DNA of 64,000 nt from assembly GCA_030674155.1 (NCBI GenBank), contig CM060335.1, positions 47,033,233 to 47,097,232 on the forward strand. Reading direction: 5' to 3'. Below the pieces are notes generated by a model that saw nothing but the letters and a program-made list of their open reading frames with translations, had not been told where the DNA came from and made no database searches. Source of the stretch: Stramonita haemastoma. Taxonomy: Eukaryota > Mollusca > Gastropoda > Neogastropoda > Muricidae. Position 1 is the stretch's first letter. Each line of letters begins with the position of its first letter. Made by a program: the position numbers and the translations under genes. Positions 12,998 through 55,440 of the stretch are shown piece after piece.

Positions 12998-13075
12998 AAC
13001 TGGGTTTGAGACGCCAGTGTACAAGAACAGGCGACTGTTTGCACGACCTGACGTGTGACGCCCTCTCCCAATGCA
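12998..13075 (+). CDS. Exon 1: four-Cys module
   Basis: This 78-base exon follows a TTCTCAG acceptor and ends at A|GTAAG. It reads 26 codons in the shared phase, with Leu-Gly shortly before the first Cys and spacing C-x5-C-x5-C-x5-C, identical to exon 11. It is the first Cys-module exon seen; nothing comparable was found in the 13 kb upstream, so the true 5' end of the gene lies left of the window or in unrecognised exons. Its donor is followed within about 10 bases by a 60-base minisatellite. Identification as an exon is by splice signals and Cys pattern only; function is not assigned. Confidence 0.8.
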
Positions 13076-13081
13076 GTAAGA

Positions 13082-13420
13082 CCTGTTTCCTTTGAGTTGA
13101 CTGCTTAGCAATGGATGTCATTAGTTGCTTCCTTGTTTCCATGGAGTTGACTGCTTAGCAATGAATGTATTAGTTCTCTTTCCATGGAGTTGACTGCTTA
13201 GCAATGAATGTCATCAGTGCTTCCTTGTTTCCATGGAGTTGACTGCTTAGCAATGATGTATTGAGTCCTGACATTCCTACTATTGTAACAATTGCTTCCT
13301 TGTTTCCATGGAGTTGACTGCTTAGCAATGAAGCAGTGCGTCATACAGTTCTTACTATCTGTATCGTTCTTCCATTGTTCTGGAGTTGACTGCTTAGCAA
13401 TGAATGTCAGGTGACATCAC
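13082..13420 (+). repeat. Minisatellite after exon 1 donor
   Basis: Six or so degenerate units of about 50-65 bases, each with GAGTTGACTGCTTAGCAATG and most with TTTCCATG. It begins seven bases after the exon 1 border. Confidence 0.85.
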
Positions 13421-13689
13421 TGACAGTTTTCTACTATCTGATAATCAGTTGCTTTCTACTATGAGTTGGTTTCAACAACACTGCCTTGTAAACATGTTGT
13501 TCAGAAAATAAAAGATAATTATATGCACTAGCAAATAGATCAACAAAGCTAAAAGTGTACACTGTGCTCAATGAGTTGTTGTTGTTGGTGGTGGTGTTTT
13601 ATTTAAAGTCTTTGTCACGCCTGGTGCAATTAATCACAAAAAAATGTCAGAAAGAGAAGGGAGAAAGGCTTTGCAGTAAAGACACGACT

Positions 13690-14010
13690 GGGAAGAAACT
13701 AGTTATTCTTTTTATTATCAACTAATGACATATTCCATCTACAAAGGACACTATCTAAATTAGTTATATTTGATCTACAAAGGAATCTAAATCAATTAGT
13801 TATCTTTGAACAACAAAGCATTTGAATCAAATTTGTTATCTTTAATCAACAAAGGACTATAACTAAATTAGGTGTCTTTGATCTGCAACAGACCCTAACT
13901 AGACTAGTTCTGATTCATCTGCACAAGACATCTAGCTTAATTATATATCTGGGATCTACAAAAGGTTTTACCTAGTTAATGGCTTTTTATCCCCAAAAAG
14001 ATTAATGTGT
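13690..14010 (+). repeat. Degenerate AT-rich tandem repeat
   Basis: Loose units of about 40-45 bases with TTAGTTATCTTTGAT-like and CAACAAAGGA-like segments. Confidence 0.6.
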
Positions 14011-14129
14011 TGCGTATAAAGGGGTTTGTTTGCCTGAATTTCCATTCACGAGTTTTTTTTTTAGTGCAGATAAATCTACCATAAGATTGGGTGCTGAAAA
14101 GAATTTTGGCAGGATATTTTGTTTCTTTT

Positions 14130-14575
14130 TGTTAATTCATTTTATTCTTGTATCGCAAGGATTGGAATAAGCACTCATGTGCCTTTTTGGATCCAGTCCC
14201 CCTGTGCATGCAGTTTTTTTTTTAATTTTGTCATCTGTTCCCACCGACACACAATGGCCCTCTCTTTCAAATACGGAACAGGATTTAACGTGTGCGCAAG
14301 ATGTTTTACGTGCATTCGTACACGGGGCCTCAAGTTTATAGTCTAATCCGAAGGGCAGTGAGGGCAGGATAAAAAAAAAAGTTGTGTAAACTTAATCTTT
14401 TACCCTCAATAAAGATCATTTTGACTTGACTTGACTTGAACTTTTGGGGAGAGTGGAGTCTGCACTGATGTTAACTCCAGGGGAAAAGTCCCTTTGAACA
14501 GGGATTCAAACCCGGTCCATTAGAGTGTGAGCGCAATGTTCTAATCGCTGGGCTATCCCATCCCTGGGTAGGGGC
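14130..14575 (-). mobile_element. tRNA-derived SINE-like repeat, split by another repeat
   Basis: On the minus strand it reads a tRNA-like head (GATAGCCCAGCGATTAGAAC, box-B-like GGTTTGAATCCC near 14505) and then the common core seen at 56481-56822. A 85-base repeat with a TTGACT tail (14356-14440) interrupts it between the CCGAAGG and ACTTTTGGGGAGAG parts. Confidence 0.72.
14356..14440 (+). mobile_element. Short repeat with (TTGAC)n tail, inserted in a SINE
   Basis: AGTGAGGGCAGGAT, then an A-run, TTTTACCCTCAATAAAGAT and repeats of TTGACTTGAC. Very similar copies are at 52745-52840 and, more diverged, 46530-46640. The tail form suggests a LINE or SINE 3' end. Confidence 0.7.
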
Positions 14576-14590
14576 TGAGAGCAAGAGCAG

Positions 14591-14684
14591 TGTGTGTGTG
14601 TGTGTGTGTGTGTGTGTGTGTGTGTGTGTGTGTGTGTGTGTGTGTGTGTGTGTGTGTGTGTGTGTGTGTGTGTGTGTGTGTGTT
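14591..14684. repeat. (TG)n microsatellite
   Basis: Pure TG run beside the SINE head. Confidence 0.95.
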
Positions 14685-15385
14685 CAGTTTGAAATCTTTT
14701 ATTTTTCATTTTGATTTTGCTTTCCTATCTGTACCTCGTACTGCCTTTATCTCCCTGTGAAGACCTAGGTTGATCCCCAGGTCCTGACAAGTTTAAATGT
14801 ATCCCAGCCAGTGGTATGTGTGACTAAAGACTGGATCGATGACTGGCCCTTACAATAACTTATGTTAGTATGGACTTTGTGCTGATGAAGATCACTTTCC
14901 TCACCCCCCCCCCCCTCAATCAGTCAGATGGGACACTTCTCGGATGCCTCTGTCCTTGCTTTCAAAGCAGTGGTCCTATTTTTTCTCTCTACAAATCAAC
15001 AGCTGCTTCATGAGATCAGGAGCAGAAGGATTTCCAAGTAAAATATTAAAAGTGAAGGCTTTTTTCTGTATGTCTGCAGAACAGAATTTCTCTCGAGACC
15101 TACATTCTGAATTGACAATACAACTAGATGAAGGCTAACAGTGTTCAAAGAGTCCTACTGTTTACAAGGTCCTGATATGATCAGTGTAATCCATTTACAC
15201 ACCAGAGTTGGCTTTGGAGTTGGCTTCAGCCTCAAACTCTTGGCCACCATTGCTTGCAGGCGCATGGGTTTTAGCACATGCACAGCAAAAACACTTCTTT
15301 TGTTTGCTGCCACTTCGTAAATCTAGCCTTCCAGCTCTGATTTAGCTTCAGCTGTCATTGCTGTTCTGTTCCAGATGTCACTGCT
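14685..15385. other. No gene seen
   Basis: Non-repetitive sequence. Small open frames lack splice-phase and Cys support. Confidence 0.5.
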
Positions 15386-53465: not shown

Positions 53466-53735
53466 GTATGTGTGTGTGTATGTGTGTGTGTGTGTGTGTG
53501 TTGTGTGTGTGTGTGTGTGTGTGTGTGTGTGTGTGTGGTGTGTGTGTGTGTGTGTGTGTGTTGTGTGTGTGTTGTGTGTGTGTGTGCGTGCGTGCGTGTG
53601 TGTGCGCGCGTGTGCGTGCGTGCTATCCTGTGTGTGTGGCGGCACGCGCGTGGGTGTGTGCGCGTGGTGTGTGCGCGCGCATGAGCATGGTGTGTGTGAC
53701 AGAGAGAGAGAGAGATAGAAAGAGAGAGAACATGA
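53466..53735. repeat. (GT)n, GTGC and (GA)n tracts
   Basis: Imperfect GT run with CGCG segments, ending in a short GA run. Confidence 0.95.
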
Positions 53736-54200
53736 ACACTGAACACTGAAATGCTTTTAATTGCACATCGGCCTTGGGCCACAATACAATGCACAGTAGA
53801 TTTGGGAAAACATCACGATATAATGCATTGCATAAAACACAGTAATCAACATTCGATACATATTCATGCGTTTATAGCATAGGCTGCTTAAACAGATGTA
53901 AGGTGCTGATTAGATAAGTTTGCTTAATTTTCACATCCTTAGTATTATCAGAATCAAGATTAAAGTGCAACTAGAAAAACAAGACGAAAAATGCTTCATA
54001 CATTATGGTTATTTCTATAAAAATGAATGATTTTTGTTTTCGTTCTGTGATGCTACTCACATATATCAACACTTAATGGTGTGTAATATAGAATGTGAAC
54101 ATTTATGTACTCAAGGACAAAACAAAATAATGACGAAGCAAGACATAATTATTTACAAATGTTGTTTTGTGGTATATCATCGGAAGGAAGAAAATGTACT
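53736..54200. other. No gene seen
   Basis: AT-rich unique sequence. Confidence 0.5.
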
Positions 54201-54204
54201 TAAG

Positions 54205-54352
54205 AGAGAGAGAGAGAGAGAGAGAGAGAGAGAGAGAGAGAGAGAGAGAGAGAGAGAGAGAGAGAGAGAGAGAGACAGACAGACAGACAGACAGACAGAC
54301 AGACAGACAGACAGACAGACAGACAGACAGACAGACAGACAGACAGACAGAA
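54205..54352. repeat. (GA)n and (CAGA)n tract before exon 14
   Basis: Ends 36 bases upstream of the exon 14 acceptor region. Confidence 0.95.
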
Positions 54353-54387
54353 GAAAATGGAACCATGGGGTTTTTCTTTCCCTGCAG

Positions 54388-54471
54388 GTCTCAAAGATGG
54401 TTCAACTTGCTCCAGCGATGGCAGTGGGACAAGATGCCTGGAGGGATCCAAGTGTGTGGACAGTTTGTGCC
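54388..54471 (+). CDS. Exon 14: four-Cys module
   Basis: This 84-base exon lies between TTCCCTGCAG and C|GTGAGT. Spacing is C-x8-C-x5-C-x4-C after Lys-Asp-Gly-Ser-Thr. Its last 15 or so bases and the donor recur downstream as TGTGGACAGTGTGTGCCGTGAGT units (54520-54620 and 55299-55400). An I-clade-like LINE fragment was inserted between units. A GA/CAGA microsatellite ends about 35 bases before the acceptor. Confidence 0.86.
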
Positions 54472-54642
54472 GTGAGTACAGGCAATCTCTCTCCTTCAAG
54501 CTCTAGCTCTTTACTGATCTGTGTGGACAGTGTGTGCCGTGAGTACAGGCCATCTCTTTCTCTCCTTCTGGCTCTAGCTCTTTACTGATCTGTGTGGACA
54601 GTGTGTGCCGCGAGTACAGGCCATCTCTTTCTTTCCTTCTGC
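54472..54642 (+). repeat. About 70-base tandem copies of the exon 14 donor region, left part
   Basis: Units read GTGTGGACAGTGTGTGCCGT, GAGTACAGGC-CATCTC and CTCTAGCTCTTTACTGATCT. They resume at 55286. Confidence 0.88.
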
Positions 54643-55285
54643 TCAGACGGACAACAAACTTTTTCGGATCCGTCCCAACCTGAAAGAGGTTCTCCCTCTA
54701 GGTGTCAAAAACCGAAGGAAGGTGACAGTGCTCACCAGGATACACACGGGTCATTCTCACATCACTCATGTTCACTTGCTGAAAGGCGAGGGAACCCCGT
54801 GGTGCGTGACTTGTAACGTGCAGGTAACCATCAGGCATCTGCTCCTGGAGTGTCGGGATGTTCAGGATATTAGGCACAAGCATTTTACCGCGGACTCCCT
54901 AAAGATCCTCTTTTGGGATGTTCCACCGGACACCATTTTAACTTCATGAGAGAATCAGGCTTTTTCCGTCTGATATGAGCGAAAGTGGTATGGTTGTTCT
55001 CTAAGGACAATGTTGTTTTAAGGAATCTGGTTTTGGTTTTATCTCGTTTTAAGTGTGATCGATGTTGGTTTTCCCACGACGTGGTGGCCGTCCTGAGCTG
55101 ACCCTTACGGTTGGCCGGGGCGTCGATACAAGCAAGGACAGTTTAGTTGGTTTTATACCTCGTTTTAAACTGTACATAGTCGCACACTTTTAATACGAGT
55201 TTTAAAATGTAACGAGGTGATAGCCCTGATATGGCCTAAGTGGTCGGCGGGGTGATAAACAACATAATTGGATTGGAATTGGTAG
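54643..55285 (+). mobile_element. I-clade-like LINE 3' end, inserted in the donor array
   Basis: Matches the last 650 bases of 49873-52595: IHTGHSHITHVHLLKGEG, HLLLECRDVQDIRHKHF, then GATAGCCCTGATATGGCCT and GATTGGATTGGAATT. It is strongly 5' truncated. It keeps a longer intact frame than the long copy, so it is a separate insertion. Confidence 0.8.
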
Positions 55286-55440
55286 CTCTTTACTGATCTG
55301 TGTGGACAGTGTGTGCCGTGAGTACAGGCAATCTCTTTCTGTCCTTCTGGCTCTAGCTCTTTACTGATCTGTGTGAACAGTGTGTGTCGTGAGTACAGGC
55401 CATCTCTTTCTGTCCTTCTGGCTCTAGCTCTTTGTTGATC
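55286..55440 (+). repeat. Tandem copies of the exon 14 donor region, right part
   Basis: Two further units with CAGTGTGTGCCGTGAGTACA and CAGTGTGTGTCGTGAGTACA. Confidence 0.88.

What the first reader, a model, noticed from the sequence alone, without database searches (positions are those of the whole stretch)
13075..55440. Tandem arrays seeded at splice junctions of the Cys exons
Several minisatellites touch or copy an exon border. Exon 4 donor (array 21188-21480, GCAGTGAGT repeated), exon 13 donor (47243-48060) and exon 14 donor (54472-54642 and 55286-55440, GCCGTGAGT repeated) are amplified. Arrays of acceptor-like units run up to exon 2 (15386-16009) and exon 11 (37433-38003). Arrays also start within tens of bases of exons 1, 11 and 12. 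So donors and acceptors exist in many tandem copies beside single exons. This could be a source of splice-site redundancy, of new exons, or a by-product of slippage at these sites.
Basis: partly seen in the sequence, partly recalled or inferred. Interest (0 to 1): 0.75.

Follow-up and report, generated by a model that had tools for sequence, protein, structure and literature searches.

The report
Repeat arrays born at exon borders
In this animal genome short stretches straddling the junction between a gene's coding block and its spacer are copied again and again into repeat arrays, much as was once seen in lancelets, and they look like a mutation-driven by-product rather than spare splice signals.

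Summary
In the window gene, 6 of 28 exon borders lie within 12 bp of a minisatellite against 0.50 expected (0 of 3000 random placements). A paralogous copy of the gene, about 250 kb away, gives the same count and shares six arrays at or near borders, with different lengths. At its exon 3 it also has a young two-copy duplication of exon end plus donor, where the window has one copy.

The pattern is not confined to this gene. At 180 borders of 90 kinesin and myosin exons, 22 of 42 arrays have their exon-side edge between -40 and +20 of a called splice junction (2.8 expected from local background). A 20-exon hold-out agrees.

These resemble the 'mirages' of amphioxus (PMC3087553, PMC3902484). Best reading: recurrent short tandem duplication with one end at a splice junction, then ordinary minisatellite growth, the copies being spliced away with the intron. 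Copied donors are not better conserved than their surroundings overall, so selection for spare splice sites is not supported. New here: a quantified enrichment, sampled in three gene families, in a genome that by its size is not amphioxus.

The parts
12998..13075 (+). exon 1 (phase 1-1, Cys-rich), donor A|GTAAGA
   Evidence: paralogue 98.7%
13084..13404 (+). minisatellite starting 9 bp past exon 1 (43-92 bp units), abutting, donor not copied
   Evidence: in the paralogue at 7 bp
15510..16005 (+). acceptor-like array (22-29 bp units, TTTCAG; two TRF blocks, 15510-15679 and 15778-16005) running to exon 2
   Evidence: paralogue array ends at the exon
16010..16126 (+). exon 2
   Evidence: paralogue 88.9%
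18354..18485 (+). exon 3, single donor here; two-copy 82-bp duplication of exon end + donor in the paralogue
21113..21187 (+). exon 4
21184..21480 (+). exon 4 donor array, 74-bp unit starting 4 nt inside the exon; 4 of 4 later copies keep GTGAGT (TRF end 21447, decayed copies go on)
36693..36820 (+). exon 10 (36693-36782) and a short decayed copy of its interior just past the donor, in both paralogues
   Evidence: BLAST match in the paralogue; seen by eye in both
37436..38000 (+). acceptor-like array (29-36 bp subunits, GGTGACTG..AG) ending 4 bp before exon 11; 1.5 kb in the paralogue
38004..38084 (+). exon 11
42032..42151 (+). exon 12
42176..43415 (+). 26-bp minisatellite starting 25 bp past exon 12, shared with the paralogue
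47108..47242 (+). exon 13, true donor GTAAGT in both paralogues
47235..48063 (+). exon 13 donor array, 118 bp x 7, unit starts 8 nt inside the exon; 0 of 6 later copies keep GTAAGT
54388..54471 (+). exon 14
54453..54641 (+). exon 14 donor array, first part, 71-bp unit with 19 nt of exon end
54642..55282 (+). retroelement fragment inserted in the exon 14 array
   Evidence: about 92% copies elsewhere on the contig; absent from the paralogue array
55283..55440 (+). exon 14 donor array, second part

Best explanation
In this genome short tandem duplications (typically about 60-120 bp) arise often with one breakpoint within roughly 40 bp of a splice junction, so that in many cases the unit carries a few to about 40 nt of exon, the splice site and the start (or end) of the intron. 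For a donor the first copy, and for an acceptor the last copy, stays attached to the exon and keeps the real splice site. The other copies fall inside the intron and are spliced away, so the duplication is nearly neutral. The pair then grows and shrinks like any minisatellite by slippage or unequal exchange, copied splice sites decay, and now and then a copy is exchanged back into the exon edge. Shown: arrays, spanning units, enrichment of array edges in the sample, young two-copy stages, length change between paralogues, loss of many copied donors. Inferred: that the excess is mutational, that the copies are spliced out, the growth mechanism and the exchange with the exon edge. Why splice junctions are the favoured breakpoint is not known; transcription- or splicing-linked DNA damage, or the exon-intron step in composition and nucleosome packing, are guesses.
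For: Window and paralogue placement tests. 90 kinesin and myosin exons, 180 borders: exon-side edges of 42 arrays fall 13 at -40..0, 9 at 0..+20, 20 further in (one of these beyond +250). Background beside the paralogue 23 arrays in 89.5 kb predicts 2.8 edges in the border windows against 22; internal comparison within -40..+250, 22 of 41, binomial 3e-6. Hold-out with criteria fixed, 20 exons, 40 borders: 5 arrays, edges -47, -40, +6, +10, +23. Young two-copy cases at borders: paralogue exon 3, L081, L129; L129 is 85 bp, 97% alike, match length 88, so 3-bp microhomology. Two related kinesin exons, L026 and L028, carry different units (61 and 88 bp) over the same exon end. Loss of copied donors. 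Exon 14 of the paralogue: its first unit is identical to its inner unit 5, while the window's first unit is a different variant, nearest to the paralogue's unit 2.
Against: A 24-mer centred on the border is not more often copied nearby than 24-mers 40-110 bp into the intron; if anything less (acceptors 8/85 against 7/56, 7/64, 10/68; donors 3/85 against 3/41, 5/57, 5/57). So what is enriched is array edges at borders, not the border sequence itself. 9 of the 22 border arrays only abut the junction. Borders were called by a simple splice score around HMM match ends, so some are off by tens of bases. The sample is two motor-protein families plus one gene pair, picked by eye, in one genome, with no RNA. 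In exon 4 the copied donors are perfectly kept (4 of 4), and in L026 the copies keep the donor.
Confidence: 0.72

Rival explanations
1. Selected redundancy: extra donors and acceptors beside an exon are kept because they back up or strengthen recognition of that exon.
For: Exon 4: 4 of 4 later copies keep GTGAGT; L026 copies keep GTGAGG; some arrays are older than the gene duplication.
Against: Exon 13: 0 of 6 copies in the window and 0 of 5 in the paralogue keep GTAAGT. Exon 14 of the paralogue: GT lost in 3 of 9 copies, GT divergence 0.167 against 0.080 elsewhere in the unit. Extending to the second donor gives a stop or a frameshift in 5 of 5 cases translated.
Confidence: 0.08
2. Passive geometry: introns were once short, so any tandem duplication in them had to lie near an exon; or arrays are stopped at exons by selection and pile up there. 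No special liability of splice junctions.
For: Array coverage is raised over the first 150-200 bp of the sampled introns, not only at the edge. In the intron between L129 and L028 both ends carry related repeat units (seen by eye), as if a short intron had been multiplied.
Against: Edges are still about four times denser at -40..+20 than further in (22 in 60 bp against 19 at +20..+250). 13 of 22 border arrays reach into the exon by the called borders, which a wall would not produce. The young duplication at the paralogue's exon 3 lies in an intron that is now 2.6 kb.
Confidence: 0.2
3. Exon and intron factory: some units (copy preceded by a pyrimidine tract and AG, followed by a donor) are or become real mini-exons or new introns, as proposed for amphioxus globins.
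For: In the paralogue exon 3 and in L081 the copy is preceded by a T-rich tract and AG and followed by an intact donor; the model is in print (PMC3087553, passages read).
Against: After the AG the copied exon pieces are 37 and 35 nt, not multiples of three; no transcript evidence; each of the 14 window exons aligns whole to one paralogue exon, so no gained intron is seen there.
Confidence: 0.1

Closest known systems
Amphioxus 'mirage' minisatellites (Adh, troponin C, globins BflGb6 and BflGb9, PGBD5)
   Different: Splicing and length variation among individuals not tested here.
[quoted passage not shown] potato RdRp case PMC4974935)
   Same: Tandem duplication that copies splice signals (PMC4974935, passages read).
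   Different: Here the duplicated piece spans an existing junction and no new intron is seen; the result is an intronic array.
Intronic minisatellites linked to alternative splicing in C. elegans (PMC4039745, seen in a search listing only)
   Same: Minisatellites in introns of multi-exon genes.
   Different: Not compared: I did not read it. It is a reminder that a regulatory role of such arrays has been proposed elsewhere.
Ordinary intronic minisatellites
   Same: Same unit sizes and growth; 20 of the 42 sampled arrays lie away from the border window.
   Different: Border arrays begin at or in the exon edge.

Membership tests
Mirage minisatellites | Repeat unit spans an exon-intron boundary | tested here: met
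   19 spanning arrays (17 without the two paralogue repeats); two more in the hold-out
Mirage minisatellites | Occurs at both donors and acceptors | tested here: met
   22 border arrays: 14 acceptor, 8 donor
Mirage minisatellites | Many but not all copies keep GT or AG | tested here: met
   for donors; acceptor copies were not counted
Mirage minisatellites | Length instability between haplotypes or somatic | not testable with these tools
   one assembly; only paralogues compared (exon 14: split array of 2.7 + 2.2 copies against 9.9)
Mirage minisatellites | Normal mRNA despite the copies | not testable with these tools
   no RNA data
Mirage minisatellites | Homogenised inside, edge units excluded | tested here: inconclusive
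   window exon 14: first unit divergent; paralogue: first unit identical to an inner one
Intron gain by AGGT tandem duplication | Duplicated exonic AGGT segment creates a new intron | tested here: not met
   units span existing junctions; the same 14 exons are present in both paralogues
EB module protein gene | Pfam EB above its cut-off | tested here: met
   25 bits against 24.3, E 2e-5, on a hand-joined exon translation: marginal

The most novel reading that the evidence does not exclude
Splice junctions themselves are hotspots of short tandem duplication in this lineage, as (independently) in amphioxus, through a lesion tied to transcription or splicing. Existing junctions would then be a steady nursery of new splice sites, mini-exons and introns, visible here at every stage from two fresh copies to long decayed arrays. 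(A clause on duplication lengths avoiding multiples of three was taken out on rechecking; the odds are for the hotspot alone and are unchanged.)
Probability: 0.3. Interest if true: 0.78.

Novelty: new member of a known kind. Interest (0 to 1): 0.58.

Why it matters
How new splice sites, exons and introns arise is an open question. Tandem duplication that copies splice signals is one proposed source, described largely from single cases (amphioxus genes, vertebrate ATP2A1, fission yeasts, potato; passages). A genome in which about one exon border in nine (25 of 220 sampled) carries such an array, from two young copies to long decayed arrays, would let the whole path be followed and the breakpoint bias be measured directly.

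Tried and rejected
Exon 4 in the paralogue: the first genome search seemed to show a paralogue without the array, because the match ends at the exon. That stretch is withheld and reads N, so it says nothing. Dropped.

tRNA genes as a control for unspliced but constrained borders: the hits look mostly like tRNA-derived repeats (303,493 first-look candidates, 63 scored). Dropped; so there is no control with unspliced constrained borders.

Copy always starting at an exon AG: so in 3 of the 5 donor cases printed (the other two do not contain the donor), but not in L129. Not a rule.

Periods divisible by three in border-spanning arrays: 1 of 17 at first (p 0.010), 2 of 19 with the hold-out (p 0.024), Fisher against 22 of 67 other arrays 0.08. 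On recheck the actual spacing from the true donor of exon 13 to the next copy is 117 in the window and 123 in the paralogue, both divisible by three although the array period is 118. The idea is not supported well enough to keep.

Protein search for the gene gave one weak hit, E 4.9e-4, and no name for the host.

Ten random 700-bp stretches gave no array, too little for a background estimate, so 117 kb beside the paralogue (89.5 kb without N, not checked for genes) was used.

Donor conservation could be computed for four arrays only: W13 and W14 yielded too few aligned copies. In W4 (3 copies aligned) and U13 the figure for 'other positions' includes exon bases outside the unit; in L026 (0.125 for GT against 0.139) one copy was aligned one base off.
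Full report
What was checked. The window is part of contig C20 of a 2.17-Gb genome, an animal by its genes. It holds a gene with at least 14 short Cys-rich exons, phase 1-1, marginally of the EB module kind (25 bits against a cut-off of 24.3). Three corrections: the two exon 14 arrays are one array split by a retroelement fragment (unsplit in the paralogue); the exon 13 copies do not keep the donor GTAAGT (0 of 6); the array after exon 11 is 106 bp from it and should not be counted.

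Chance. Placing the 21 window arrays at random in the introns (25 bp of overlap with exons allowed) gives 0.50 borders within 12 bp of an array; 6 of 28 are observed, reached in 0 of 3000 trials. In the paralogue, 17 arrays give 0.30 expected and 6 of 28 observed, 0 of 3000. The two genes are not independent.

The paralogue. A copy of the gene lies about 250 kb upstream with 14 of 14 exons at 88.9-100% identity. It shares arrays at or near donor 1, acceptor 2, acceptor 11, donor 12, donor 13 and donor 14, so these are older than the gene duplication. Sizes differ: acceptor 11 has 0.56 kb against 1.5 kb; donor 14 has 2.7 + 2.2 copies, split, against 9.9. Part of the paralogue after exon 4 is withheld, so exon 4 cannot be compared. 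At exon 3 the paralogue has two copies of an 82-bp piece made of 39 nt of exon end, the donor and 43 nt of intron in all; the window has one copy. That looks like the earliest stage of such an array.

Beyond this gene. I sampled exons of two other families, kinesin motor (60 of 125 matches) and myosin head (30 of 70), with 250-330 bp on each side. With minisatellites defined as period at least 15, TRF score at least 65 and not a microsatellite, there are 42 arrays near 180 borders. Their exon-side edges fall at -40..0 in 13, at 0..+20 in 9, and further into the intron in 20, one of these beyond +250. Background beside the paralogue is 23 arrays in 89.5 kb, which predicts 2.8 edges in the 60-bp border windows; 22 are seen (Poisson 4e-13). 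Within -40..+250 the share is 22 of 41 (binomial 3e-6). These criteria were set after a first look at the kinesin set, so 20 further exons (15 kinesin, 5 myosin) were taken as a hold-out with the same settings: 5 arrays, edges at -47, -40, +6, +10 and +23; 3 in the window against 0.62 expected, p 0.025. Of the 22, 14 are at acceptors and 8 at donors. A kinesin or myosin gene may contribute several exons, so borders are not fully independent.

Results against. A 24-mer centred on the junction is not more often repeated nearby than 24-mers deeper in the intron, if anything less. So the excess is in where arrays begin, not in the junction being the most repeated sequence. Array coverage is raised over the first 150-200 bp of the sampled introns in general, which leaves room for a passive account. 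The border calls are approximate, and there is no control with unspliced constrained borders (one search failed as one).

How it forms. Young cases are simple tandem duplications. L129 has two copies of 85 bp, 97% alike, with a match length of 88, hence a 3-bp microhomology. L081 has two copies of 85 bp with 37 nt of exon. L026 and L028, related kinesin exons, have copied the same exon end with different units of 61 and 88 bp, which points to independent events at the same junction. For a donor the first copy remains the exon's own; for an acceptor the last. That the rest is removed with the intron is inferred.

What the copies do. If they were kept as spare splice sites they should be conserved. 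In the exon 14 array of the paralogue the GT has diverged more than the rest of the unit (0.167 against 0.080, 9 copies); in exon 13 of the paralogue 0.200 for GT and 0.267 for the hexamer against 0.152 (5 copies); in exon 4 of the window 0 against 0.160 (3 copies); in L026 0.125 against 0.139, one of 4 copies aligned a base off. The true donors of exons 13 and 14 are intact in both genes. Reading on from the exon to the second donor gives a stop or a frameshift in 5 of 5 cases translated. There is a hint that the exon edge takes part in array turnover: in the paralogue the exon 14 end (11 nt), donor and first unit are identical to an inner unit, while the window's first unit is a different variant, and the two exon ends differ by one amino acid there, Leu in the window and Val in the paralogue.

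What is known. Amphioxus genes have like structures, named 'mirages': Adh, troponin C, globins and PGBD5 (PMC3087553 and PMC3902484, passages read; the original Adh paper was not found in the library under a recalled DOI). The globin authors report that splicing seems undisturbed and suggest that new introns could arise this way. In the listings of nine searches of the held library I saw no report of an enrichment test or of mirages outside lancelets; I read passages of three papers only, and most subscription papers are not in the library. That this host is not amphioxus rests on genome size (amphioxus about 0.5 Gb, recalled).

Verdict. It is a new occurrence of a known kind, most likely a mutational by-product with a strong preference for splice junctions, whose cause is open.

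Noticed in passing
G000:C20, about 46.795-46.861 Mb (loci L004-L023): A paralogue of the window gene with 14 of 14 exons at 89-100% identity; intron pieces align at up to 94% (only pieces over 80% identity and 250 bp were listed).
   Followed up: yes
54642-55282: Retroelement fragment inserted in the exon 14 array; two copies of about 92% identity lie elsewhere on the same contig.
   Followed up: partly
loci L026, L028, L129: Kinesin genes with arrays at several junctions: L026 and L028 have one at or near each end of the exon, and L129, about 1 kb from L028 on the same contig, a fresh duplication.
   Followed up: partly
paralogue exon 3; L081; L028 donor: In these donor duplications the copied exon piece begins at an exonic AG; in the first two it follows a T-rich tract, so that the copy looks like a complete mini-exon.
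   Followed up: partly
19 border-spanning arrays and two of the hold-out: Periods divisible by three looked rare in border-spanning arrays (2 of 19 without paralogue repeats), not in others (22 of 67); but the true first spacing at exon 13 is 117 and 123.
   Followed up: partly
3126-3867 and 60029-60591; 1965-2105 and 58857-58997: The two ends of the window carry copies of the same sequences, the first pair a tandem repeat with the same unit.
   Followed up: no
G000:C34:14.81-14.93 Mb: 42 of the 46 listed EB-module matches of the genome lie in one cluster, away from the window gene.
   Followed up: no
G000:C1:6924721, 6926385, 6928161: Three neighbouring matches to the same myosin-head segment (about 120-153, one with a stop inside), perhaps alternative exons.
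   Followed up: no
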